This document shows positions 17,655 through 34,870 of a stretch of DNA of 64,000 bases, in pieces. Numbering within the stretch: position 1 is the first letter of the stretch; the number at the start of each line of letters is the position of its first letter. The translations under genes were made by a program, and so were the position numbers. The notes below the pieces were generated by a model. It was not told the origin of the DNA. It searched no databases and saw only the letters and a list, made by a program, of their open reading frames with translations. The stretch is from Spiroplasma gladiatoris (GTDB taxonomy: Bacteria > Bacillota_I > Bacilli_A > Mycoplasmatales > Mycoplasmataceae), in the NCBI RefSeq assembly GCF_004379335.1, contig NZ_CP038013.1:434001-498000 (forward strand). Reading direction: 5' to 3'.

Positions 17655-19637
17655 ATGAAAAGAATTTTAAGTTTATTAGGAGTAATAAGTTTAACTTCAT
17701 CAATAGCGTGTGGAGTTGTTGCTTGTAAAAAAAATCCAAATTCTGAAAATACTGAAGAAAATGGTATTTACAAAGATTATTTATCTACTCTTTCAGAATA
17801 TAAAGGAAAAATTAGAGATATTATTAATGGACAAATTCGATTAGTTCAAAATTCATGACAAATTGATAGTGATCAATCAAAAAATAATAAATTTTTAAAT
17901 ATCACAGTTTTAGAACCAATTTTAAAAGAACTTAGTCCTGTTGAAGATAGTGTTCAAGGAAAAAATGGATCATATCTTCTAAACCAAGTTTTTGAAAAAA
18001 ATAATTTTTTACAAGAATCATATTTTGCTGATTTAAATACTTATTTAGATTTTGATTTAATTAGAAAACAAGTCATTGAATTATCTAAAGATGAAAAATA
18101 TAATATTTTAACTGGTGGTATTGATGAAGATAATTTAATACTTATAAATAGAGAGAAATACGGAGTAAGTGAATCAAACTTTAAACCTGTAGTTAATTAT
18201 GTTCAAGATCAATTAGTAGAAGTTAAGTCAATAGTATATTTTGAACTAAATTATCTTGGAATAGATGGTGTTTTATCAAAGAATGAAGAAAATAAATATG
18301 ATTTTAATTACCAAATATGAACAAAAACAGATGTTCTTGGAGGCTTGAAAAAAAGCTTAGAAGAATTAAAATATAGTCTTTTAATTAATGATGATATTGA
18401 AAAATCTTCAATAATTCAAGAAAATGATGTTACTTCTAATTATGATGATTTAAAAAACAAGTTTATTGATAAGTTTAACAAATTAAGTGATCAAATTTTA
18501 GAAGTTTATAATAAGAATGTTAACGCTTCTGGTTATACTTTTTCATGAGATAAAGAAAGCAAAACACCATTTAATAACTTTGGAGATACTACAGAAGAGG
18601 TTTGAGATTATCAAGCTAAACCTTCTTCTAAAAAAGAATATGCTTGAAAAGATAACAATGATTTATATAAAAACTTAGAAGCAAATCCTGAATTATATGA
18701 TTATATTTTTAAAGATATTTCTAAATCAAAAGATGAAGATGGTGTTGAAACTTCTATTAATAATTATATATACAATGAATTGCCAAATTGATTTAATACT
18801 TATTATTCAAACATAGAATTTGATGCTAATAATGATGAAATATTTAAATCAATTGAAGATACTGATCTAAAAGAAAAAATTATAAAAAAATTAAAATCTA
18901 CTATCGATCTTAAAAGAGTAAGTGTTGGAAGTTTAAAATTAAATATAAGCGGTGTTGAAACTTCTATTAATAATTTAGATATATTAACTGGATTTAGTTT
19001 TGATACAAATGAGGATCTTAGCCAAATCAACAAAGAAAATAAAAACTCAAAAACAGCACTAGGTTTAGCTAAAAATGTTGATAAAGGTTTAAAATCTTAT
19101 AAAAATGTTTTAGGTGTTAGAAAACCTTCAGATTTAAAAAATAACGACTTTAAAGATTATCGTATGTTTGGATTTGATGGTGGTAAATATAATTTATGAG
19201 ACACTTTTGATTGAAATGTAATATTTCGTAATGGAGATTTTTTAATTTTTTTATGAGGACCATTTGTAGAACCACTCAATAGATACTTATCATTAAAAGC
19301 TGACAATAACGAAAGTCAAGTTAACGCAAGAAAAGAACTTTTATCTGAAGGTAATCAAACAAAATTTGATATAGGTTTCCAAACCAAAGAAAGTGCATCG
19401 GGAAGAGGTAGAATTATTAAAGAAGATAATGTTGGTGATTATTGAAATAATGATTATCCTGGATTTATAATAAATGATCAAGGTGGAGGAACAGGTAATT
19501 GATATAATCATTGAGAGTTATCAATTGATTATTTAAGTGTAAGTTTTAAAATTATTGAAAACTTTACTGGAGATAAATATTATTATAATATCTTTGCAAA
19601 TACTGCAGTTATTGAAAAACTAAACAAAAAAGCTTAA
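17655..19637 (+). CDS. Large lipoprotein, tandem copy A
   Basis: A 660-residue lipoprotein: MKRILSLLGVIS signal peptide, lipobox VVAC with Cys24, and a linker (NPNSENTEEN). It is nearly identical to the gene at 20119 (same length, only scattered substitutions) and a distant paralog of the gene at 11127. About a dozen TGA codons are Trp, concentrated in the C-terminal half (YNLWDTFDWNVIF). It contains an exact 26-nt internal repeat (18741 and 18951, coding GVETSINN twice). No enzymatic motif seen; probably a surface antigen. Confidence 0.9.
18741..18976 (+). repeat. 26-nt direct repeat inside lipoprotein gene A
   Basis: GGTGTTGAAACTTCTATTAA plus six more bases occurs at 18741-18766 and 18951-18976, in the same reading frame and 210 bp apart. 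Recombination between them would remove 70 codons in frame. Confidence 0.85.
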
Positions 19638-20043: not shown

Positions 20044-20118
20044 CAAATTTTTTTATAATATTTACATAGATTGTTTATTTTTTATTTTTTTTTGTTATTC
20101 TATAAAAAAGGAGACAAA

Positions 20119-22101
20119 ATGAAAAGAATTTTAAGTTTATTAGGAGTAATAAGTTTAACTTCATCAATAGCGTGTGGAGTTGTTGCTTGTAAAAAAAATC
20201 CAAATTCTGAAAATACTGAAGAAAATAATAATTACAAAGATTATTTATCTACTCTTTCAGAATATAAAGGAAAAATTAGAGATATTATTAATGGACAAAT
20301 TCGATTAGTTCAAAATTCATGACAAATTGATAGTGATCAATCAAAAAATAATAAATTTTTAAATATCACAGTTTTAGAACCAATTTTAAAAGAACTTAGT
20401 CCTGTTGAAGATAATGTTCAAGGAAAAAATGGAAAATATCTTCTAGACCAAGTTTTTGAAAAAAATAATTCTTTACAAGAATTATATTTTGCTGATTTAA
20501 ATACTTATTTAGATTTTGATTTAATTAGAAAACAAGTCATTGAATTATCTAAAGATGAAAAATACAATATTTTAACTGGTGGTATTGATGAAGATAATTT
20601 AATACTTATAAATAGAGAGAAATACGGAGTAAGTGAATCAAACTTTAAACCTGTAGTTAATTATGTTCAAGATCAATTAGTAGAAGTTAAGTCAATAGTA
20701 TATTTTGAACTAAATTATCTTGGAATAGATGGTGTTTTATCAAAGAATGAAGAAAATAAATATGATTTTAATTACCAAATATGAACAAAAACAGATGTTC
20801 TTGGAGGCTTGAAAAAAAGCTTAGAAGAATTAAAATATAGTCTTTTAATTAATGATGATATTGAAAAATCTTCAATAATTCAAGAAAATGATGTTATTTC
20901 TAATTATGATGATTTAAAAAACAAGTTTATTGATAAGTTTAACAAATTAAGTGATCAAATTTTAGAAGTTTATAATAAGAATGTTAACGCTTCTGGTTAT
21001 ACTTTTTCATGAGATAAAGAAAGCAAAACACCATTTAATAACTTTGGAGATACTACAGAAGAGGTTTGAGATTATCAAGCTAAACCTTCTTCTAAAAAAG
21101 AATATGCTTGAAAAGATAACAATGATTTATATAAAAACTTAGAAGCAAATCCTGAATTATATGATTATATTTTTAAAGATATTTCTAAATCAAAAGATGA
21201 AGATGGTGTTGAAACTTCTATTAATAATTATATATACAATGAATTGCCAAATTGATTTAATACTTATTATTCAAACATAGAATTTGATGCTAATAATGAT
21301 GAAATATTTAAATCAATTAAAGATACTGATATAAAAGAAAAAATCTTTAAAAAATTAAAATCTACTATCGATCTTAAAAGAGTAAGTGTTGGAAGTTTAA
21401 AATTAAATATAAGTGGTGTTGAAACTTCTATTAATAATTTAGATATATTAACTGGATTTAGTTTTGATACAAATGAAGATCTTAGCCAAATCAACAAAGA
21501 AAATAAAAACTCAAAAACAGCACTAGGTTTAGCCGAAAATGTTGATAAAGGTTTAAAATCTTATAAAAATGTTTTAGGCGTTAGAAAACCTTCAGATTTA
21601 AAAAATAACGACTTTAAAGATTATCGTATGTTTGGATTTGATGGTGGTAAATATAATTTATGAGACACTTTTGATTGAAATGTAATATTTCGTAATGGAG
21701 ATTTTTTAATTTTTTTATGAGGACCATTTGTAGAACCACTTAATAGATACTTATCATTAAAAGTTGACAATAACGAAAGTCAAGTTAACGCAAGAAAAGA
21801 ACTTTTATCTGAAGGTAATCAAACAAAATTTGATATAGGTTTCCAAACCAAAGAAAGTGCAGCAGGAAGAGGTAGAATTATTAAAGAAGATAATGTTGAT
21901 TATTATTGGAATAATGACTATCCTGGATTTATAATAAATGATCAAGGTGGAGGAACAGGTAAATGATATAATCATTGAGAGCTATCAATTGATTATTTAA
22001 GTGTAAGTTTTAAAATTGTTGAATCATGAACAAGAGATGAATACTATTATAATATATTTGCAAATACTGCGGTTATTGAAAAACTAAACAAAAAAGCTTA
22101 A
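20119..22101 (+). CDS. Large lipoprotein, tandem copy B
   Basis: A 660-residue near-duplicate of the gene at 17655, with Cys24 lipobox and the same 26-nt internal repeat (21205 and 21415). The start was set at the ATG at 20119 after AAGGAGAC, since the longer open frame upstream has no site. Differences include GIY/NNY near the N-terminus, KNGSYLLNQ/KNGKYLLDQ, and a more diverged last 25 codons (IIENFTGDKYYY against IVESWTRDEYYY). Similarity begins about 15 bases before the ATG and ends at the stop, so the duplication is almost exactly the coding region. Confidence 0.9.
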
Positions 22102-22203: not shown

Positions 22204-22470
22204 TTACTTTCTTAATCCTAATTTTTCAATAACAGCTTTATATCTGTTAACATCTTTTTTAAGTAAGTAATTTAATAAATGTCTTCTTTGAGCAACTTTT
22301 TTAACTAAACTTCTAATTGAAGAATAGTCTTTTTTATGTTTTGCTGAATGATCTTGTAAGTTTTTAATATCGCTGGTTAACAATGCGATTTGAACCTCTG
22401 CTTTACCAGTATCTTTGTCATTGTCTCCGAAATTATTAACAATATCTGTTTTTTGTTTACTTGAAACCAT
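22204..22470 (-). CDS. rpsO: 30S ribosomal protein S15
   Basis: An 88-residue protein of normal S15 length with the family landmarks DTGKAEVQIALLT, LQDHSAKHKKDYSSIRSL and RRHLLNYLLKKDVNRYK. S15 binds the central domain of 16S rRNA early in 30S assembly. It is minus-strand here and not next to ribF, whereas in many Firmicutes it follows truB-ribF on the same strand. A decayed second copy lies on the plus strand at 24970-25229. Confidence 0.97.
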   Translation of the reverse strand: MVSSKQKTDIVNNFGDNDKDTGKAEVQIALLTSDIKNLQDHSAKHKKDYSSIRSLVKKVAQRRHLLNYLLKKDVNRYKAVIEKLGLRK

Positions 22471-22640: not shown

Positions 22641-24116
22641 TGTCAATAACATATGATATTTTCCTTATATATAACAAATTAAAATTTTCCAAACTATAAT
22701 TATTTTATTGGAAGGTTTAAAATGAGGAGATATTTAAAAATGAATGAAAAAAAGAGAGTGGAAATTATCAAAGACGTTATAGAACAAAAAAAACAAAAGA
22801 GTCAGCTTCTATAAAGTTATGTCAAACAATTAGAAATGTAAATATATTAATTAATAAATATAAAAAAAATGGTTACATATCTTTTATTCATAAGAACACT
22901 GGCAGATTGTCTTGCAGAAGAATTAGCAGTGATATTAGTCAAAAAATAATTAAATTATATAAAGATGAATTTTGTGACTATAATTACAAACGCTTTCAAG
23001 AAAAGTTGCTAGAAAATTATAATATAAAAGTTTCGTATACATATTTACTTAGTTTATTAAAGGGAAATAACATGTATTCTCCAAGAATACATAGAGTAAC
23101 TAAAAAAATAATTAAACAAAAAATAGCTAACAGTTTAAAAAAATCAAAATATAAAAACTATAGAAAAAAAAGTATTTAAATACTTTATTAAGTATTTAAA
23201 ATAGTCATCCGATGCAACGTTGAAAAACTGAGTTTGGAGAAAGGTTGCAAACAGATGCTTCTGTACATTACTGAATTAAAGAAGAAAAATGATATCTACA
23301 TGGTTTTATTGATGATGTTACTGGCAAAATATTGGCTTTATATTTTGACACTGAAGAAACTCTTATGGGTTATTACAATATCACAAAGAAAGTTTTGCTT
23401 AATTATGGGATTCCTAAAGAAATATTGAAAGACAAAAGAACGTATTTTGAAGTCCAAAAGAAAAGGAGTCAGATCTACATTCTGACTCCTTAACACAATA
23501 CGGATTTTTGTGTCACAACTTAGGAATAAAATTAACAACATCTAGCTTTCCACAAACTAAAGGCCGTATTGAAAGGTTGTGAAATACACTTCAAGATCGC
23601 CTACCAAAAGAACTTAAAGAAAGTAATATATCAACTATAAACCAAGCTAATTTGTTTTTAGATGAATATATAGATAAATATAATTCACAGTTTCCCCTTC
23701 AAATAGAGAATATCACTAATTCTTTTAGATTTTTTGAAGAAACTAAAAATATAGATTTTTATTTATCTAGAATATTTGAAAGAACAGTAAATAAGGGTTC
23801 AACTATAAAATACCAAAATAAGTACTATATTACACATTCAAATGAAGAACCAGTTTTTTATAAAAATAAAACAAAAATAATGGTTGTTGAGACATTTGAC
23901 GGAAAACTATATTCAAACTCATATAGCGAATGAATGCCTTTATTAGAAGTATTACAAAATTCTACTTATAAAGAGGTGTATGAAGATAAAAACCCGGATG
24001 AGATAAATAAAATTTATAATCCAATAAAAACAAGCAGTCCTTGAAAGTATACTAATTGAATATTTTATAAAAACTCAAAAAATAAAGTTTTAGGAAAAAT
24101 TAATTAGTTATTGACA
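22641..24116 (+). mobile_element. Frameshifted IS1202-like element, second copy
   Basis: A 1,476-bp element with the same terminal repeats TGTCAATAAC (22641) and GTTATTGACA (to 24116) as the intact copy, in the opposite orientation. No target duplication is visible: the 20 bases on either side differ, so one flank has been rearranged or has decayed, or the copy arose by recombination. Confidence 0.9.
22721..24107 (+). pseudogene. IS1202-like transposase, frameshifted
   Basis: Over 95% identical by eye to the intact transposase but broken by small indels: a lost base near 22787 (EQKITKES becomes EQKKQKS), indels near 23165 where KNIEKKEYLNT becomes KNYRKKSI and a stop, and a lost G near 23442 (DKRTVFW becomes DKRTYFE). 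The remaining pieces (22907-23179, 23652-23933 and on) keep the DDE residues. It may be moved by transposase supplied from the intact copy. Confidence 0.9.
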
Positions 24117-25294: not shown

Positions 25295-26353
25295 ATGTAT
25301 AATGGAACAAGTTTATTTTCCAATGTGGGAATTGATGAACATTTTTTTAAAACAAGAAATGTAAAGATAAAAGTGGCTAACGAATTATTAGATAAAAGAG
25401 CTATGTTTTACAAACATTTATATCCTGATGTAGATGTAATAATAGGTGATATAAGAAATGATATCGTTTTTAAAACTATTATAAATAAACATGTTAAATA
25501 TAAATGTGACTTTCTGATTGCTACTCCACCTTGTCAAGGTATGTCTGTGGCAGGAAAAATGGATAAAAATGACGAGAGAAATGCTTTAATTAAATATGTT
25601 GTAAAATTTATACAAATAACAAAACCGAAAAATATTTTAATAGAAAATGTACCAGGTTTATTAAAATTTAAAATAGAAGTTAATGGCGAAAAAGTAGCAA
25701 TTAAAGATTATATAATTAACACTTTAGAATGTATGGGCTATATAGTTAATTATGGTGTTTTAGATGCCGCTGATTATGAAACGCCTCAACATAGAAAAAG
25801 AGCGATTTTTCTAATTTCTAATATTAGGAAGTGAGAATTTCCTAAACCCAAAAATAGAATAACTGTAAAAGATGTTATATATAATTTAGAAAGTATAGAG
25901 TCTGGCGAAAAAGGAAAACATAGATTTCATTATGCAAAAAAACATAATAAAAAGCACATTTTATGAATGAGTAATACGCCAACAGGCAAATCAGCACACG
26001 ATAACTTAGAACATTTTCCTATAAAGGATAATGGTGAAAAAATAAAAGGATATAAGACAACTTACAAAAGAATTGATTGAGATAAGCCTGCTCCAACAAT
26101 AACTATGGCAAATGGATCAATTTCAAGTCAAAATAATGTTCACCCAGGTAGAATAAAAAAAGATAAAACTTATTCGGATGCTAGAGTATTGACGATATTA
26201 GAACTTTTAAGGTTAACAGGGTTACCAGATGATTGAAATATACCGATCTGAGCTACCGATAATTTAATCCGAGAAGTAATCGGAGAATCATTTCCGCCTA
26301 AGTTTGCTTTATCAATGTTAAGTACAATGCCAAATGAATATGAAGATGAATAA
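25295..26353 (+). CDS. DNA C5-cytosine methyltransferase
   Basis: A 352-residue Dcm-type enzyme that transfers methyl from SAM to cytosine C5. Motif I is slightly unusual (SLFSNVGID), motif IV has the catalytic Cys80 in ATPPCQGMS, motif VI is IENVPG (Glu117), motif VIII is QHRKRAIFL. Motifs IX-X (SDARVLTILELLRLTGLP and IGESFPPKFA) close the protein. The target-recognition region is between residues about 180 and 270. Its 3' end overlaps the ATG of the next gene, an HNH endonuclease, by 8 to 14 bases, so the pair is a type II restriction-modification system. Four TGA codons are Trp. Confidence 0.92.
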
Positions 26354-27479
26354 AATTATATGACAAGCACCAGGCAATGGAAAAATATTCGATAGCAGTT
26401 TCTATGATATCAATAAGACTAATTCTTATATGACTACAAGAAGTTTTTATGTGCTTGAATTTTTTATTAAAATGGGGAAGATAAAAATTATTAAAATTAA
26501 AGATTTGGAAAAACAAATAAAAAATTATTTAATTAATAACTTTAAATCATTTAAAAAGAATGATAGCGTTGTATCACACTTCTATAAACCTTTAATTTTT
26601 TATGGTCTTTTGAAATATATTTATATTGGAAATGACAAATATATTATGCCTTCTTTTGAAGGTAGAAAATTTGTAAGTGAAATTAAAATTAATAATTCTA
26701 CTCTTGCATTAAGTTACTTTTTTAGGGCCACCATGGAAGTTATGTACCCAAACGATGCTACTCCAGATGTAAAAAATTTATATCTTTTTCCATTTAGAAT
26801 AATTTATTATTATATTTTAAAAAATGGTTTTATAACCAAAGATTTTATTGATTATAAAATAGTTTTTATAAATACTATTGCAGATATAAATAATAACATT
26901 TTTTATAATTTAAAAAATACATCAAAAAACAAAAAGTTCAGAACATGAGTTATTAACTCATTAGTCGATGTAGGAATACTAAATTTAAAAAACGACATAT
27001 ATACTTTGAATAATAATATAATAACTTTAATACAAAATGAATATGAAATGAATATCGATAAAATGTTTTTTACATGAAATGATGAAATAGAATTTTATGA
27101 TACAAAGATTATAACTAAAAATAAAGCGAGAAATCAAAAGTTAGCGAAATCTTGTATAGAGAGATCTAATTTCAAATGTGAAATTGACAATAATCATTTT
27201 ACATTTAATAGTTTATCTAATAATATGTATTTAGAATCACATCATGTTATACCTTTTTCTATGCAAAATAGAGTTGATTTTGAATTAGATGTAATTGATA
27301 ATTTAATAGCTTTATGTCCTAATTGTCACAAAGCTATGCATTATGGCGATAGCAACATAAAAACAAGTATGATAAATGCTATTTATAACTATAAAAATAA
27401 CTTTTTATACAAAAATAATATTAATTTAAATGATTTGTTATACATTTATTTAAATAATACTTATTTATATAAAAATTAG
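26346..27479 (+). CDS. HNH restriction endonuclease
   Basis: A 377-residue protein (379 if started at the in-frame ATG at 26340). The C-terminal domain is an HNH (beta-beta-alpha metal) nuclease: YLESHHVIPFSMQ with His299-His300, then DNLIALCPNCHKAMH with Cys324, Cys327 and His328. The N-terminal 270 residues resemble no domain I can name and presumably bind the DNA target. The start codon lies inside the methyltransferase gene, which fits tight coupling of the two. It should cut the site protected by the C5 enzyme. Intact in code 4. Confidence 0.88.
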
Positions 27480-27886
27480 TATAATAAAAAATATAATAAG
27501 ATTGTAATTTTAAATAAATGTCTAAAAATTAATTTTATATAAGTTTTGCAGAAAATTGCTGTTTTACTATTACCCCATATAATTATGTAAGTTTAGAGAC
27601 TCTATGATTAAAAAAAATATGAATTAATTAATGCATTAACACTGATAGAATCTTTTTAATTATTGCTTATTTTAGCATTTCCACTATCACTTATGTAATT
27701 TGATTAGAAAAAATAAATTCTACACATGAAATAGGTGTAGGATTTTTTTATGTAAAAAAACTTAATAATAATACAGTGAATTAAAATTGTTAAAATATAA
27801 AAAACAAAAAATAAAAATATTAAAACAAGAGTAAAAAATAATTAAATAAAAATAATTATACATAAAGATTATTTAATAGATAATTA
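27480..27886. other. Non-coding stretch with one hairpin
   Basis: No gene seen. CTACAC/GTGTAG at 27720-27740 with a T-run to 27749 is a plausible terminator for the restriction operon, although it is 240 bases downstream. Confidence 0.5.
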
Positions 27887-28660
27887 TTGTATAAAAGTTT
27901 ATTAAGAAAAAAATTTATAAAAAATAAAAAGTCAAATAATTCTAATATTTATGGAATTATAAATTATCTTAAAGAAAAACAAATAAAAGAGTTAATTGAA
28001 AGGAGAATAAAAAAGAAAAAGATAAAAAAGAAAGAGAACAATCAACAAAATAACATTATTAAATTTAAAAATGAAATTAAGAATTCTATCAATGCATAGA
28101 GCTACATTTTATCAAAACAAGCAAAAATAATATATAGGGATATAAACTTATAAATTTATTTGAAGAAATATTATTTAAATCTAGGTATATCTATACAGTA
28201 GAAGAATAAGTGTTTTTTCATAAGTACAAGTAATAATTAACATAAAGAAATATAGTATATCAATAAAGATGAAATTTCATAATTAAAACAAAAAAACATT
28301 TTTACTAATTTAAAGAACTAGTAAATTGTGATTACAACTCTATTAAAGATAACATTATAGCGACTGATATGTTCCTTGTTTAGTTAAAGAAACAAGCACT
28401 CCTTATCTGCTGCTATAAGTCATAAAATTCAAAAAATAAAATTTTATATTTGTCAAAAAAACAAAAACAATGCAGAACAATTTGAAGACTTTAAATATAA
28501 CAAATAAATAAAATTTTATTTTACATTTAGCATGGTTCTTGATAATCTAGTTATTAAGTTAGAAAAATAGTAAAACAAATAAATCGTCAGACAGGAATGA
28601 GTCTAACTGAAACTCATTAGATAATAGAGAAATATAGCTTTTTTTTTTTTTTTTGTTAAA
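27887..28660 (+). mobile_element. Decayed transposase of another IS family
   Basis: A basic helical 70-codon frame (27887-28099, ending NNIIKFKNEIKNSINA) leads into a broken second part. Pieces legible across frames: KDNIIATD (about 28345), LVKETSTPYLSAAISHKIQKI (interrupted, about 28380-28435) and NSLDNREI followed by an F-rich stretch (about 28605-28640). IIATD, YLSAAI-HK-KI and NSLDNREIEYFF-type blocks are typical of IS3-like mollicute transposases distinct from the one at 1-1190. Heavily decayed. Confidence 0.55.
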
Positions 28661-28864
28661 TTGTAAGCTGTCAAATCACATAACAAAAAATGAAAATAAA
28701 TAAACATACAGACCTATAGAGCGGTATATAGATTAATATAACAACAAAAAAATACAAAAAGTTTTAAATTGAAAAATGCTGGCTGTTGTCACTTTTAAAA
28801 TTTAAACTGTTGAATTTATTTTTTCCGTTTTTTTTTTTTTTTTTAATTTTTTTGCCTAAATAAA

Positions 28865-29790
28865 ATCAATATAAACATATGTTAGAGGACCATTTGCTTA
28901 ATTATTGTTATTATATAGTTGTAAAATTTTATATAATTATTTATTGCTTTTTTAATTTATTAAAATTGATTTTTTTAGTTTTGTTTTCACTCCCTTTATA
29001 AGGGTAAAGAAGTTTTTACACATTGCATTATCAATAGAATTATCAAGCCATGAAAATGATATTGTAATATTATTTTTTAAAATAAGTCATACCAACTATA
29101 AATTAGGTATTTGAGTCTTTTATAATACTGACTTACTATAAAACATTTTTTATTCAATATTTTTTTATTCTTGGCAAACCACAAATATTATTATTCTTTA
29201 AAAAATATCTTTTATTTCATAAACTAAATTAATGTATATTTTACGTTATATTCTGGTTTGTCTTTATTATGTCAACGATAATAACTCGCTATTGTTATAT
29301 TTAATAATTCGCATAGAGAAATAAAAGAGTATTTACTCTTATATTTCTCTATGCTTTTATATTAATTAATTATTATTTTTTTAAATCATCTATTAGTTAA
29401 TTAAACTTTTTTAAAATATCATTATCGATTTCCAAACACTTTATTTTTTGTTAAACTCTGCATTTTTTTATATTTTGAATTTTTTAAATTAGTTCTAATT
29501 TTTCCATTGTGTTTATTATGTTTCCCCACTTTTAAAATAAATGACTCGTAACCATAAAACTCTCAATTAACACACATTATTTTAACTGACAAATAATAAA
29601 TGTTATAAATATTTTATAAATCTCTATAAGATAAATTTTGATTAAAATGGTTACTTACAATCTCCTTTTTGGTATCAAAATATAAAGTATTTTATTTATA
29701 TCGCTTTAAATTTGTTATATAAAAAATTTTCCTTATATAATTTTATGTTTTTCAACATGATTTATACTTAGAAAATTATATTTAAAGCAT
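28865..29790 (-). mobile_element. Strongly decayed third copy of the IS3-type element
   Basis: Follows the order of the 4999-6280 element on the minus strand: ATGTTAGAGGACCATT near the left end, CACATTGCATTATCAATAGA at about 29020, the orfB N-terminal region at about 29150-29350, the KHNKHN-type stretch at about 29510 and the right end TTATACTTAGAAAATTATAT near 29765-29785. The central part of orfB is deleted (from about 29085) and stops are frequent. It is a much older copy than the other two. Confidence 0.8.
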
Positions 29791-29943
29791 ATGTTAATAT
29801 GTTGTATTTTTCTGAAATAATCTCTTACAATTAACATAAAAATTTATAAACATTAAAAAAGCGTTTAAATATAAAACAAGAACTAATAATTTTAAATTGT
29901 TGAATGCTATTAATTTATGTAATAAAATATAAATGGTGATTTT

Positions 29944-30978
29944 ATGAAAAATAGTTTTAGAAATTATAATAAAATTTATTTAAAAGTACTCTTAGACGGA
30001 AATAAGAAACGTAAAGTAAATGACTTTAACTATTTATTAATAGAATTAAATAAATTAGTAAAATCAATCAGTATTTTATTTCCTGAAAACTCAAACATTA
30101 AATCATCAATAGGTAAAGGTTATTTAACTCACACACCTTGAATTTCAATTTTTGAAAAGAATAATTATGGTTTAACAATAATTTTCTATCCACTTTTAAA
30201 CGGTTATTCAATAAATATTTGTCAAAAAACAGCAGATTTTTTTAATTCTAAAGAAGGAGTATTAGAATTAAAAAATAATAGAATAAAAATGGAAAAATAT
30301 CTTAAACCATTGATGAAGAAAATAGGTTGAAAAAATAACTACCCGGAATTCTTTTATGATAACAATAAAGGTGTGATTACTAGAGGTGAAAGTTACTTAA
30401 TCAGTTCTCCTGTGTGTAAATTTGTAAAGAATAATGATAATGCTTTAGATATAGAAAAAACTTTTAATGATATAAAAACTCTTTTTTATTATCTAAGTGA
30501 ATATCAAGAACTTTCTATTGTTAATCCCACTTTGGGAGACTTAAATTTAATAAAAAAAGACAAACGCAATTATCTAGAAGTGATAAACAAGTATTTTAAG
30601 TTTTACCACAATTATTTTTCTAATAATAATATTGTCAAAGACATTATTGTTGGTGATGGGTATTTTAACAATAGAAGTACAGTTGACAGAAATAAAAATA
30701 AAAAAATTCAACTAATAAAAACAGAATTAGGTGATGATGCTGAAAAAAAGGTTGTTATTTATGAAAAAAGAAATCTTTTATTAAAAAATAGAGCAGATTT
30801 AGCTCAAAAGGTTAAGCAGAAAGATACTGACGGTGATGGGTATGATGTAGAAAGTTATTATCCGAATGGTAAAATAAAAAAAATTGAAGTAAAATCATCT
30901 TTAAATGATAATAAAACTATTTATATTTCAAAAAGAGAATGAGAAATGTTTAAAAATAAAGAAACTTTAATATATTAA
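29944..30978 (+). CDS. MrcB-like / NO VEIN-type nuclease, C-terminus cut by a stop
   Basis: A 344-residue protein. The N-terminal part (WISIFEKNNYGLTIIFYPLL and SINICQ, residues about 66-100) resembles the MrcB/DUF3578 domain found in restriction subunits. The C-terminal part (GDDAEKKVVIYEK from about 263, then GYDVES with Asp301 and IEVKSS with Glu315 and Lys317) matches the DUF3883 / NO VEIN C-terminal nuclease, a PD-(D/E)xK fold. After TAA at 30976 the same frame stays open for 35 codons (VFIDNKNINITEILYPDI) to 31086 and looks like the family's normal end. So this is a nonsense-shortened nuclease; activity is uncertain because the catalytic residues remain. Confidence 0.75.
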
Positions 30979-31099
30979 GTATTTATTGATAATAAAAATA
31001 TAAATATAACAGAAATACTTTATCCTGACATAAAAGAAGAAAATTTGATACCTATTAATTATTTGATAAAGTTTGATATGAGATAAAAGGAATGATTAT

Positions 31100-32278
31100 A
31101 TGAAAAAATACATCAATGTTGAAAACATTATAAGAAGCACAGACTTAAGAACATTATGCACTGTTTATTTTAATCTGATCGAAGATGAAGATGAAAATTA
31201 TTTTGTGGTTAAGTCACATTATAAAAAATCAAAGTTTAAAACTAAATTAAACTATAACGATGACCTTCTTGAAGAAAATAATAAATTACTGATTAACTAC
31301 ACAGAATTACCGTTTTTTTTAAAAAATAGAGTACATTATTGTTATATAAAGAAAAACTTAGAATTTAATAAACTCGAATTATTAACAGCAGCCTTGTATA
31401 AAAGAATTCAAAATTTGAGAAGTTTTTATTCAACTAATGATTTTAAAATTTATGTTTTTGTTGGTCTGTTCGGATTAAGAGGAAGTGTAGATTTTTCAAG
31501 AAATTTATATGCAGTTGACTTAAAAAAGCAAGTAGCTACAGAAACATATTGTAAAAACATATTTTATCTTTTAACAAGTATTGAAGGTCTTGAACAACTA
31601 AACTTTAACTTTAGAGACCTCCAGCCAGAATACATAGGCGGTAAAAAAAGAGATGATCAAATAAGAATAAATTTAAAATATTTTTATGAAAATTTTTATA
31701 AAGAAATAAGAAAAATAAACACATATAAAGCAGATATTATTGAATTTAATAGAGATCTTTTCATAAATAAAAGTACAAGTTCTTTATTTAATAACCAGTT
31801 TATAGAAAGAATGATGTTTTATATAAAAGCCGCTTTTTCAAAAGAGTACTCTTTTGCGGATGATATTGAAAATCTACGTAAAAAACTAAACCTTGAAATT
31901 AAACCTTCACTAAAAAGAAATACCAGTATAGTTGTTTATGCCAAAGCACTTCTTCCCGATATATGTTATGGTTGTTATGAAAAATACAAAGTGATTGACA
32001 GAACTTTTTATTACAGAAATAGTGAAAATTTATACTTAGAAATTCATCATGTTATATCTTTTTCTAATGGAGAAGTTGATCAAATTGATAATCTAGTTAA
32101 ATTGTGTCCCGCTTGTCATAAAGCTCTTACACCTAATAGAGCAGATGAAAAATATCAAAAAGAAATAATTCAATCAATTTTAAAGTTAAATAAAGATGTA
32201 TGTAGATATGTTGAAAATTTTACAAGTACTTATAATATTTACAAAAATATAGATTATATTTATTCTAAACTAAAATAA
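31100..32278 (+). CDS. HNH restriction endonuclease, partner of the fused methyltransferase
   Basis: A 392-residue protein with a C-terminal HNH domain that carries a full zinc-knuckle pattern: Cys289-x2-Cys292 (CYGC), LEIHHVISFSNG with His316-His317, and DNLVKLCPACHKAL with Cys336 and Cys339. The N-terminal 280 residues have no recognised domain and probably recognise DNA. It lies 14 bases after the end of the extended frame of the preceding nuclease gene and 68 before the fused methyltransferase gene, all on one strand, so the three are likely one operon. The whole gene happens to contain no TGA codon. Confidence 0.85.
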   Translation: MKKYINVENIIRSTDLRTLCTVYFNLIEDEDENYFVVKSHYKKSKFKTKLNYNDDLLEENNKLLINYTELPFFLKNRVHYCYIKKNLEFNKLELLTAALYKRIQNLRSFYSTNDFKIYVFVGLFGLRGSVDFSRNLYAVDLKKQVATETYCKNIFYLLTSIEGLEQLNFNFRDLQPEYIGGKKRDDQIRINLKYFYENFYKEIRKINTYKADIIEFNRDLFINKSTSSLFNNQFIERMMFYIKAAFSKEYSFADDIENLRKKLNLEIKPSLKRNTSIVVYAKALLPDICYGCYEKYKVIDRTFYYRNSENLYLEIHHVISFSNGEVDQIDNLVKLCPACHKALTPNRADEKYQKEIIQSILKLNKDVCRYVENFTSTYNIYKNIDYIYSKLK

Positions 32279-32346
32279 ATATAATTTTATGTTATCATTC
32301 TTTATGAGGGAAAAAAAATAACTACCTCACAAAAGGAGAAATTGTT

Positions 32347-34125
32347 TTGAAGCAATTTAAAATATTAGATCTTTTTTCAGGTGCGGGTGGATTTTCTTAT
32401 GGAATGGAAATGAATGAAAATTTTAAAACAGTTTTAGCTGTTGATATTAATAAAAATGCAATTGAAACATTTAAGAAAAATTTTCCTAGTTCAGAAGTTA
32501 TATTGGGCGACCTAACCATAGAAGAAGTAAAAGAAGAAATCGTTAATATTTGTATTGAAAAAAAAGTAAACATGATAATTGGGGGACCACCATGTCAAGG
32601 ATTTAGTTTAAAAGGAAAGAAACTTGGCTTAAATGATTCGAGAAATTTTTTGTTTTTAGAATTTTTTCATATAGTAGAAAAATTAAAACCTGAAATTATA
32701 GTTATAGAAAATGTTAAAAATATGTCTACAGCTTCAGATGGTTTTTTCATAAAACAGATTGAAAAAATGTTTTCTGATATTGGATATAACATAAATCATG
32801 GAATATTAAATTCATATAATTTTGGTGTTCCACAAATAAGAGAGAGAACCATAATAATAGGCTGTTTAAGCAAAAATATTAAATTACCCAAAGATTATAT
32901 AACAAAAAAAAACACTGTTAGAAATGCGATAAGTGACTTGAATTATTTAAAATCAGGTGAAGGAAGTTTTGAAGAAGTATATAAAAAAGAACCTGATTGT
33001 GAATTTCAAAAACAAATGAGAAAGGATTCTAAGCTATTATATAATCATCAATCTAGTAATCACTCAAAATTATCATTACATAAACTATCTTTAATACCAC
33101 CCGAAAAAGGAAAAGAATATTTACCTAACGACCTAATAGGTAAACAAAAATTTAGCACTACATGAACAAGATTGGAATGAGATAAACCAAGCCCTACAAT
33201 AGATACGAGATTTGACACCCCATCTAATGGCAAAAACTCGCATCCAATTTTAAATAGAGCTATAACTCCAAGAGAAGCTGCGAGAATTCAAAGTTTTCCA
33301 GATAATTTTATTTTTTACGGTAATAAAACAGAGGTATGTAAGCAAATAGGAAATGCTGTTCCACCATTATTGTCTAAAGCTATTGCTGATTCAATAATTA
33401 AACAAATTGATTTTGTTAAAGTTAGAGGCAGCGGATTTGAAATTTATAGGGCAGATTCATTTAATCTTATGAAAGATATGTTAAAAAAACATAAAAAATT
33501 TAATCATATTTTTACAGATCCACCTTATAACATTTCTCAGTGCAATAATTTTTCTACATTGAAAATACCAAGAAAAGGTTTAGATTTCGGGATGTGAGAT
33601 AAAGATTTCAATCTCTATGGCTGAATAAAAGATGCATCTTTATTGCTTGATAAAAATGGTTCTATAATTATTTTTTGTTCCTATAGATATATAAGTTTTA
33701 TAATAAAAGAACTTGAAAAAAATGAAATCGATGTTAAAGATGTAATTAAATGAATTAAAAAAAATCCTATGCCAAGAAACAGAGATAGAAGATATGTTCA
33801 AGACACAGAATTTGCAATTTGAGGTGTGAAAAAAGGATCTAAATGGGTATTTAATAGAAACGAATCTTCACCTTATTTAAGAGCTGAAATAAGAACTAAT
33901 CTAGTAAGTGGTAAAGAAAAAACGAAACATCCTACTCAAAAAAGTTTATCTTTATTAAAAGAGATTATAGAAATTCACACTAACAAAAATGATGTTATTT
34001 TTGACCCTTTTATGGGGAGTGGCACAACAGGTGTTGCCGCTTTAAGTCTGAGTAGAAAATTCGTAGGAATCGAGTTAGAAACAGAATATTTTGATATTGC
34101 AAGAAAAAGAATAGAAAATATATAA
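32347..34125 (+). CDS. Fused DNA methyltransferase: C5-cytosine plus beta-class amino-methyltransferase
   Basis: One 592-residue chain with two complete methyltransferases. Residues 1-350 are a Dcm-type C5 enzyme: motif I DLFSGAGG, catalytic Cys83 in GGPPCQGFS, IENVKN at 121, QIRERT at 163, and motif X QIGNAVPPLL near 332. Residues about 355-592 are a beta-class amino-methyltransferase (N6-adenine or N4-cytosine): motif IV TDPPYN at 390-395, then KHPTQK and motif I FDPFMGSGTT at 552-561. Two methylating activities of different kind in one chain suggest an asymmetric site, with each half modifying one strand. The start is TTG at 32347 after AAAGGAG; the five TGA codons are Trp. No shift or stop at the junction. 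Confidence 0.92.
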
Positions 34126-34312
34126 ATATTCTTTACATTAATCACAAAGCTTAATAATTTTAAAAATAGGTAAATTAATAAATTTTAGATTAGTAATGAG
34201 TAGTAATTTAGTGTATAATTAATTTATGCTTTGGAACTAATTTATAAATTATTTCCAAATCAAATAAAATAAATAAATATTATGTTTTACATTAGAAAGA
34301 TGGTGCGAAAAG
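34126..34312 (+). promoter_or_regulatory. Promoter and leader hairpin of the next gene
   Basis: TATAAT at 34214-34219, preceded directly by TG, is a good -10. The leader then has a hairpin TTTGGAA/TTCCAAA at 34230-34259 with further pairing in its loop. It may stabilise or regulate the mRNA. Confidence 0.5.
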
Positions 34313-34870
34313 ATGGCTACTACAAAAAAAGGACCAGATAATGCAGCGGTAAAACGTGCTGCATCTAACGCAAAAAGATCTGAACACATTCAAACAAGAA
34401 AAAAAGCGAGTGACCCAAAACCAAACAAAATTCAAAACAAAGATATTAAATTAACAGAAGGTCAATCAAAATTTATTTGAGAAAAAGCAGATCCAGTTTC
34501 AGCAACAAATGCTGCTATTTATAGAAAAGATGTTGCAGGAGCTATTATTAAATTTAATCAATTTGGAATGGAATCAGAATTTGGATGAGTTAATGCTCCA
34601 ATTGATCCAGAAGGTGAATACGATGATGTTAACAACATCGTAGCATTACACTGAATGAATGCAAAAGTTAAGCGTAAAGCTGATGAACCTTGAGTTGCTC
34701 CGGTTTCAGGAATTAGAGACACAAGAGAAATTTATAACTTTATGAAAGAAATTAAAGTTCCAGGTGATGCGTTGGCAAAATCTAAAAAAACTGTTTTATT
34801 TAAACCTTCAGTTGTTGAACCTAAAAAAATTAATATTGAAATTCGTAAACAACAACCAAAACTTAAATAA
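34313..34870 (+). CDS. HNH-fold-like protein without catalytic histidine
   Basis: A 185-residue protein, interrupted by four TGA (Trp) codons. The first 50 residues are basic and Ala/Lys-rich. Residues 50-125 follow the layout of small HNH proteins: IWEKA, YRKDVAGAII, then FGMESEFGWVNAPIDPEGEYDDVNNIVALHWMNAKVK. Where such proteins have W-E-I-D-H-I-x-P, here it is WVNAPIDP, so the catalytic His is gone. I infer a DNA- or RNA-binding protein derived from an HNH nuclease. It has its own promoter and a strong terminator and is probably core rather than part of the restriction island. Confidence 0.7.

What the first reader, a model, noticed from the sequence alone, without database searches (positions are those of the whole stretch)
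31100..34125. Single-chain C5 plus amino-methyltransferase paired with an HNH endonuclease
Seen: one uninterrupted frame holds a full C5-cytosine enzyme (GGPPCQGFS, Cys83; QIGNAVPP) and a full beta-class amino-methyltransferase (DPPY 391-394; DPFMGSG from 553), preceded by a gene for an HNH protein with CxxC knuckles. Known: type IIS systems with asymmetric sites need a different methylase per strand; MnlI pairs an HNH nuclease with separate m6A and m5C enzymes, HphI also uses m5C plus m6A. Inferred: this is a fused-methylase type IIS system in a mollicute, and the fusion keeps the two activities in fixed ratio.
Basis: partly seen in the sequence, partly recalled or inferred. Interest (0 to 1): 0.72.

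Follow-up and report, generated by a model that had tools for sequence, protein, structure and literature searches.

The report
Fused-methylase CCTC restriction system, self-targeting promoter
This is a bacterial DNA-cutting defence system whose two protective methylating enzymes are joined in one protein; that kind is already known, but its methylase promoter carries a mirror-image pair of the system's own predicted target sites, shared with many of its relatives, which may let it sense its own methylation.

Summary
Under code 4 an HNH nuclease (31100-32278) precedes one 592-residue frame holding a complete C5-cytosine and a complete beta-class amino-methyltransferase (32347-34125). It is no sequencing artefact: 12 of 298 genomes of the order, the host included, carry this single frame; 11 of the 12 lie beside a relative of this HNH gene or its remains. 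I infer a type IIS CCTC/GAGG system: m6A on one strand, m5C on the other, cut by the HNH enzyme. Fixed ratio of activities is untested.

New here: GAGG-N15-CCTC, an inverted pair of the predicted target, lies 31-45 nt before the methylase start in 10 of 16 fused loci checked (one more has N14), against 0 of 5 split loci. It suggests autoregulation by promoter methylation or self-binding; an mRNA hairpin is the rival. The neighbouring MrcB_N/NOV_C gene belongs to a second system.

The parts
31100..32278 (+). HNH endonuclease, 392 aa; likely cognate restriction enzyme (CxxC knuckles CYGC and CPAC, HNH core EIHHV...N...H, read by eye)
   Evidence: Pfam HNH 9e-9; PADLOC PDLC03514 REase_II 248 bits over 35-391; 43% identical homologue in the same place in G004
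32293..32298 (+). -10-like hexamer TATCAT, 7 nt before the putative operator
   Evidence: consensus match only
32306..32328 (+). putative operator GAGG-N15-CCTC: inverted pair of the system's own predicted target sites, starting 41 nt before the MTase start
   Evidence: N15 spacing in 10 of 16 fused loci, N14 in one more; the only GAGG-N15-CCTC in the 1.16-Mb genome
32333..32338 (+). Shine-Dalgarno-like AAGGAG, 8 nt before TTG 32347
   Evidence: read from sequence
32347..34125 (+). fused DNA methyltransferase, 592 aa, code 4
32347..33405 (+). C5-cytosine methyltransferase domain (residues 1-353)
   Evidence: PF00145 4-352
33436..34122 (+). beta-class N6-adenine methyltransferase domain (residues 364-592), relative of M1.HpyAVI
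   Evidence: PF01555 386-586; 5hfj 1e-85 and 5e-87 over 225 residues

Best explanation
A type IIS restriction-modification system for the asymmetric site CCTC/GAGG. The 592-residue chain carries both protective activities: the C5 half methylates a cytosine of CCTC, the amino half methylates the adenine of GAGG on the other strand. The HNH protein cuts unmodified DNA at or near that site, probably a few bases away as MnlI does. The methylase gene has its own promoter between the two genes; its start region holds two inverted CCTC/GAGG sites, which most likely act as an operator, so that methylation of the sites, or binding by the fused enzyme, lowers methylase transcription once the host DNA is protected. 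Shown here: the genes, domains, linkage, and conservation of the inverted pair. Inferred from homologues: target, marks, cleavage. Inferred only: autoregulation (my odds for it alone are about 0.5, see the section on the most novel reading; the confidence below is for the restriction system).
For: P0001 matches PDLC03279 over 3-590 at 723.6 bits (next model 388) and P0002 matches PDLC03514 at 248 bits. PMC13417997 reports these two families as the S. haemolyticus MTase/REase pair for GAGG/CCTC, with the MTase gene in E. coli validated by MnlI digestion and SMRT (passages). M. agalactiae J7894_00205: m5C in CCTC by bisulfite, m6A in GAGG by SMRT, assigned to one enzyme (PMC9465063, passages). 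M. hominis DCM3: 592 aa, same two domains, upstream HNH protein of 409 aa, CCTC m5C in 4 of 22 strains, correlated with dcm3 (PMC10305163, section 22 and passages). The amino half aligns over its length with M1.HpyAVI; the residue at its P41 is Ser, and P41S lowers GGAG but not GAGG activity (PMC5173035, passages). MnlI is an HNH enzyme cutting CCTC 7/6 (PMC4081073, passages). Of 12 intact fused loci of the order, 9 have a full-length P0002-type HNH gene alongside, 2 have it broken or as a fragment, 1 has a weakly HNH-like gene. GAGG-N15-CCTC stands in 10 of 16 fused loci and is the top inverted word of all 256 four-letter words tried without prior choice; 0 loci in 2000 mononucleotide shuffles.
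Against: No methylome of this host is available. In M. hominis GmAGG methylation was not detected, so the amino half may be silent in some members. Sources disagree on which cytosine is methylated, and one labels it m4C. CCTC is not avoided in the host: observed/expected 1.16 in 184 kb, 1.33 in G004 which also has the system, 1.17-1.32 in four relatives without a full-length fused match, so that test gave no support. Operator: absent in 5 of 16 fused loci, in L077 and in the pseudogene L067, and in 5 of 5 split loci; the window's copy lacks the extra complementary pair and its -10 lies 7 nt away rather than the usual 1-2.
Confidence: 0.87

Rival explanations
1. The methylase is active but the HNH protein is inert or does something else, so the pair works as a solitary (orphan) methylase, as M. 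hominis dcm3 was classed.
For: PMC10305163 lists dcm3 among solitary methylases (passage). In 2 of 12 fused loci of the order the HNH gene is broken or a fragment, and in one the neighbour is only weakly HNH-like.
Against: The window's HNH frame is intact with its histidines and knuckles (by eye), its relatives sit next to the fused gene in upstream, downstream and divergent layouts, and S. haemolyticus isolates carry the two families in nearly equal numbers (54 REase, 53 MTase of 169 isolates).
Confidence: 0.12
2. The two halves have unrelated targets and the fusion is incidental.
For: Halves occur as separate adjacent genes in 3 of 298 genomes, and a C5 methylase 58% identical to the window's half is fused to an EcoRI-type adenine methylase in L019.
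Against: Both marks of one asymmetric motif were assigned to one gene in M. agalactiae and S. haemolyticus; M1.HpyAVI targets GAGG, HpyAVIBM targets CCTC.
Confidence: 0.05
3. The inverted GAGG/CCTC pair is an RNA hairpin in the 5' leader (stability or translation control) and owes nothing to the enzyme's target.
For: Six tested leaders of the 11 fold at -5.6 to -12.2 kcal/mol, z -2.9 to -4.7; the pair just inside GAGG/CCTC is complementary in 9 of 10 rows with three pair types, against 3.6 expected on re-pairing (8 of 5000 as high).
Against: GAGG/CCTC itself does not vary in the 11 loci although its neighbours do, and it equals the family's known target. (The search asked for GAGG and CCTC, but the unprompted scan picked the same word.) In 9 of 11 loci GAGG starts 1-2 nt after the -10 hexamer, so by the usual 7-nt rule (recalled) transcription would start at or after GAGG and the stem could not form.
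Confidence: 0.25

Closest known systems
S. haemolyticus PDLC03279/PDLC03514 GAGG/CCTC type II system (PMC13417997)
   Same: Both window proteins match these two PADLOC families, the methylase over its whole length
   Different: Other host and genetic code; the passages I saw mention neither the fusion nor promoter sites
M. hominis DCM3 with up_DCM3 (PMC10305163)
   Same: 592 aa, C5 then beta-class amino MTase, upstream HNH gene; CCTC m5C
   Different: GmAGG not detected there; classed as solitary
M. agalactiae J7894_00205 (PMC9465063)
   Same: One enzyme held responsible for m5C in CCTC and m6A in GAGG
   Different: Authors liken it to enzymes that change target base; the passages read describe no second domain
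HpyAVI (M1/M2) and MnlI systems
   Same: CCTC/GAGG target; C5 and N6 enzymes in H. pylori with high similarity to the MnlI methylases; HNH nuclease in MnlI
CfrBI, LlaDII, AhdI, LlaJI promoter-site regulation (PMC12707154, PMC3874152, PMC1459862)
   Same: Cognate sites in the methylase promoter; the LlaJI promoter has two sites of an asymmetric target
   Different: Here a fixed-spacing inverted pair is kept in loci from six families of the class; regulation itself not shown

Membership tests
PADLOC PDLC03279 fused methylase (GAGG/CCTC) | Full-length match across both domains | tested here: met
   3-590 of 592 to 2-585 of 587, 723.6 bits
PADLOC PDLC03279 fused methylase (GAGG/CCTC) | Cognate REase family PDLC03514 encoded next to it | tested here: met
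   P0002 248 bits; 68 bp between the genes
PADLOC PDLC03279 fused methylase (GAGG/CCTC) | Methylates A in GAGG and C in CCTC | not testable with these tools
   needs SMRT or nanopore plus EM-seq
C5-cytosine methyltransferase | PCQ catalytic motif, FxGxG, QIGNAVPP, PF00145 | tested here: met
M1.HpyAVI-type beta-class N6-adenine methylase | DPPY then FxGxG order; residues equivalent to D29 and E216 | tested here: met
   alignment to 5hfj, both positions conserved
MnlI-type type IIS system | HNH nuclease | tested here: met
MnlI-type type IIS system | Sequence kinship of P0002 with R.MnlI itself | not tested
   R.MnlI sequence not at hand in the tools used
MnlI-type type IIS system | Cleavage CCTC(7/6) | not testable with these tools
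   biochemistry needed
MnlI-type type IIS system | Separate m6A and m5C methylases (feature as recalled) | tested here: not met
   fused in one frame; hence a fused relative, not filed as MnlI
R-M systems regulated by promoter methylation | Cognate site(s) in the methylase promoter | tested here: met
   for the predicted site: 32306-32328
R-M systems regulated by promoter methylation | Methylation of the site changes transcription | not testable with these tools
   reporter and mapping of 5' ends needed

The most novel reading that the evidence does not exclude
The fused methylase family carries a conserved epigenetic autoswitch: an inverted pair of its own asymmetric targets at fixed spacing (T-GAGG-N-A-N11-T-N'-CCTC-A in most copies) over the start region of its promoter, found in loci from six families of the class. 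Because one chain writes both strand marks, the operator could read complete modification of the cell directly and shut the methylase gene when protection is complete.
Probability: 0.5. Interest if true: 0.5.

Novelty: new member of a known kind. Interest (0 to 1): 0.33.

Why it matters
As a restriction system it is ordinary: a further mollicute member of a family with published methylomes. What could matter is the operator. A recent review says of control by promoter methylation, in the sense that the nuclease gene needs an active methylase to be transcribed, that it is apparently rarely used (PMC12707154, passage). A target-site palindrome kept at one spacing in loci whose upstream DNA is otherwise little alike (median 38% identity over 60 nt) would be a broadly conserved example of control through own target sites. 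It is easy to test with a reporter in E. coli, and it gives sequence evidence of the target (GAGG/CCTC) without any methylome.

Tried and rejected
P0003 (29944-30978, MrcB_N/NOV_C) as a third component: rejected. In G004 and G001 its homologue lies with homologues of the window's other C5 methylase (25295-26353) and second HNH gene (26334-27479), and in G004 that cluster lies about 100 kb from the fused methylase.

Host avoidance of CCTC: negative, O/E 1.16; no lower than in four relatives without a full-length fused match (1.17-1.32), and 1.33 in G004, which has the system. GAGG as a Shine-Dalgarno word may confound this test.

Structure of the HNH protein: three-row alignment, mean pLDDT 38.8, discarded. 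The fused chain modelled at pLDDT 74.1, pTM 0.66, with only a few residues between the last C5 helix (to 353) and the first amino-domain strand (from 357); no fold search was run.

Single origin of the fusion: not supported. On the C5 tree of 33 rows the fused label needs 6 changes (shuffled mean 11.2) and starred branches force at least 2; gain and loss cannot be told apart. A first tree used rows that were poorly trimmed (559 columns kept for a domain of about 350) and was replaced.

RNA family search of 29800-34400: no match. Search of viral contigs with the HNH alignment: 284 pattern stretches, no relative. As a control for the operator I gave 39 EcoRI-type or C5-only loci; 30 were counted and none had GAGG-N8..24-CCTC in the 150 nt upstream; nine were not counted (one too near an edge, the others not recognised by the script's motif or length rule). 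Gene starts were set mechanically (nearest ATG/GTG/TTG before the first motif, or first start of the frame for the EcoRI-type chains).

Full report
What is there. Read with code 4, the window holds an HNH protein of 392 aa (31100-32278) and, 68 bp on, a single chain of 592 aa (32347-34125) with a whole C5-cytosine methyltransferase (PF00145, 4-352) and a whole beta-class amino-methyltransferase (PF01555, 386-586). The window lies at 434001-498000 of a single 1.16-Mb contig; the full chain occurs once in that genome. The name of the host is not known to me; Spiroplasma-like is a guess from genome size, code and the look of the lipoprotein signal peptides.

The fusion is real and recurrent. Of 298 genomes of the order, 20 match at E 1e-60 or better: 12 (the host included) have the same uninterrupted frame, one has it with three TAA, three have the two halves as adjacent separate genes, one has only the amino half and three have only a distant C5 match. 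Standard-code members of the same class carry it with no stop codon (L107/L132, L108/L133, L138, L140), and so does a Mycoplasma anserisalpingitidis prophage record. On a C5 tree of 33 rows, fused and split forms are intermixed. So no sequencing error is needed to explain it, and if the well-supported branches hold, fusion or fission has happened at least twice.

The nuclease belongs with it. Of the 12 intact fused loci of the order, nine have a full-length relative of P0002 alongside, one has it broken in three frames, one has a fragment, and one (G101) has a gene that is only weakly HNH-like: 49 bits on a profile of the others, Pfam HNH_2 below its cut-off, no PADLOC match. The pseudogene copy in G116 and the prophage copy have no P0002-type neighbour in the stretches held. 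Layout changes between loci: upstream on the same strand, divergent, or downstream. Linkage kept while layout changes argues for a functional pair. The same two gene types occur in L132 and L133, and on the L. plantarum plasmid pLY7801, where C5 is a separate 360-aa frame and the amino gene is broken.

Target and marks. The methylase matches PADLOC PDLC03279 over its length and the nuclease PDLC03514. In S. haemolyticus these two models mark a GAGG/CCTC system; its methylase gene placed in E. coli was validated by MnlI digestion and SMRT (PMC13417997, passages only). M. agalactiae J7894_00205 is held responsible for m5C in CCTC and m6A in GAGG (PMC9465063, passages). M. hominis DCM3 has the same length, domain order and an upstream HNH gene, with CCTC m5C in 4 of 22 strains, correlated with dcm3, but no GmAGG detected (PMC10305163, section 22 and passages). 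The amino half aligns over its length with M1.HpyAVI (5hfj); the equivalents of D29 and E216 are kept, and the P41 position is Ser, the residue that lowered GGAG but not GAGG activity (PMC5173035, passages). HpyAVIBM methylates the first C of CCTC (PMC3411764, passages). Which cytosine is hit here stays open, and the m4C label in PMC13417997 conflicts with the C5 family and with the bisulfite data of PMC9465063. Same PADLOC family does not prove same target; the promoter pair below is the only target evidence from this sequence itself.

A new feature: the promoter holds the target as a palindrome. Upstream of the TTG at 32347 lies GAGG-N15-CCTC (32306-32328), the only match to that pattern in the genome. 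Of 16 intact fused loci examined, ten have N15 and one N14, 31-45 nt before the start; five lack it, and the prophage copy L077 and the pseudogene L067 also lack it. It is absent from 5 of 5 split loci and from 30 of 30 EcoRI-type or C5-only loci that could be counted, of 39 given. Without choosing a word beforehand, GAGG at N15 is the top inverted four-letter word of all 256 in the 60 nt upstream (10 of 16 loci; the next, TGAG, is the same repeat read one base out), and 2000 mononucleotide shuffles gave no locus with it. The 60 nt upstream of GAGG are otherwise little alike (median 38% identity, highest 57%). In 9 of 11 loci a TATAAT-like hexamer ends 1-2 nt before GAGG; in G004 the gap is 6 and in the window 7. 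One further pair, just inside the repeat, is complementary in 9 of 10 N15 loci with three pair types (re-pairing control 3.6; 8 of 5000 as high); these rows are related, so that control is not a strict probability, and the window is the one exception. The 11 loci come from six families of the class by the codes.

How it likely works. When the genes enter a new cell, CCTC sites are unmodified and the methylase promoter is open; the fused chain then modifies both strands of each site. The two sites in its own promoter are modified or bound as well, and transcription falls. Precedents for control through cognate promoter sites are CfrBI, LlaDII and AhdI (PMC12707154 and PMC3874152, passages); the LlaJI promoter holds two cognate sites (PMC1459862, passages). 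Direction and mechanism are inference. An RNA hairpin is the main rival: six of the 11 leaders were folded and gave -5.6 to -12.2 kcal/mol. I favour DNA because GAGG/CCTC is constant where its neighbours vary and because in most loci the usual distance from the -10 (recalled) would place the start of transcription at or beyond GAGG.

Against my reading. The host does not avoid CCTC (O/E 1.16 in 184 kb). The operator is missing in about a third of fused loci. I have no methylome, cleavage or expression data for this host. My searches for print on the operator were made, plus the passages read in the homologue papers; I saw no mention of it, but most subscription papers are not held and REBASE was not at hand.

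Neighbours. A second system, C5 methylase 25295-26353, HNH 26334-27479 and MrcB_N/NOV_C protein 29944-30978, lies just upstream; the trio recurs in G001 and G004, in G004 about 100 kb from the fused system. It is independent of the finding.

Verdict. Observation confirmed; interpretation supported apart from the untested fixed ratio; kind already known in mollicutes and staphylococci. The promoter palindrome raises the interest above that of a routine new member.

Noticed in passing
window 25295-30978: A second, independent restriction cluster: C5 methylase (PDLC03384, 399 bits), overlapping HNH protein, and an MrcB_N/NOV_C protein; the trio recurs in genomes G001 and G004.
   Followed up: partly
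window 27480-29943: About 2.5 kb with one listed ORF of 60 aa or more (70 aa, Lys-rich, at 27887) between the second HNH gene and the NOV_C gene; the matching gap is about 0.5 kb in G001 and 3.4 kb in G004.
   Followed up: no
L002 (host genome near 700644-701309): A separate M1.HpyAVI-like beta methylase (234 aa, 46% to the amino half) overlapping by 17 nt a 296-aa protein that by eye looks like a Dam-type methylase (not searched); recalls the DCM8/DAM3 pair that is fused in one M. hominis strain.
   Followed up: no
L019 2180-4279; frames of similar size (about 700 aa) in L022-L025, L050, L051, L079: Another two-methylase fusion: an EcoRI-type adenine methylase (PF13651, tested on L019 only) in front of a C5 methylase 55-60% identical to the window's C5 half, in plasmid, phage and MAG records. 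It may share the CCTC target; none of the loci counted has the GAGG/CCTC promoter pair.
   Followed up: partly
window 17655-19637 and 20071-22101: Two tandem lipoprotein-like genes of about 660 aa, nearly identical by eye.
   Followed up: no
window 22907-24107: Transposase-like frames in pieces (by eye a decayed insertion element) between an rpsO-like gene (22204-22470, minus strand, by eye) and the restriction genes.
   Followed up: no
L077 5400-7244: The fused methylase also lies in a putative prophage of Mycoplasma anserisalpingitidis (MW353169); no P0002-type HNH gene was found in the 13 kb held.
   Followed up: partly
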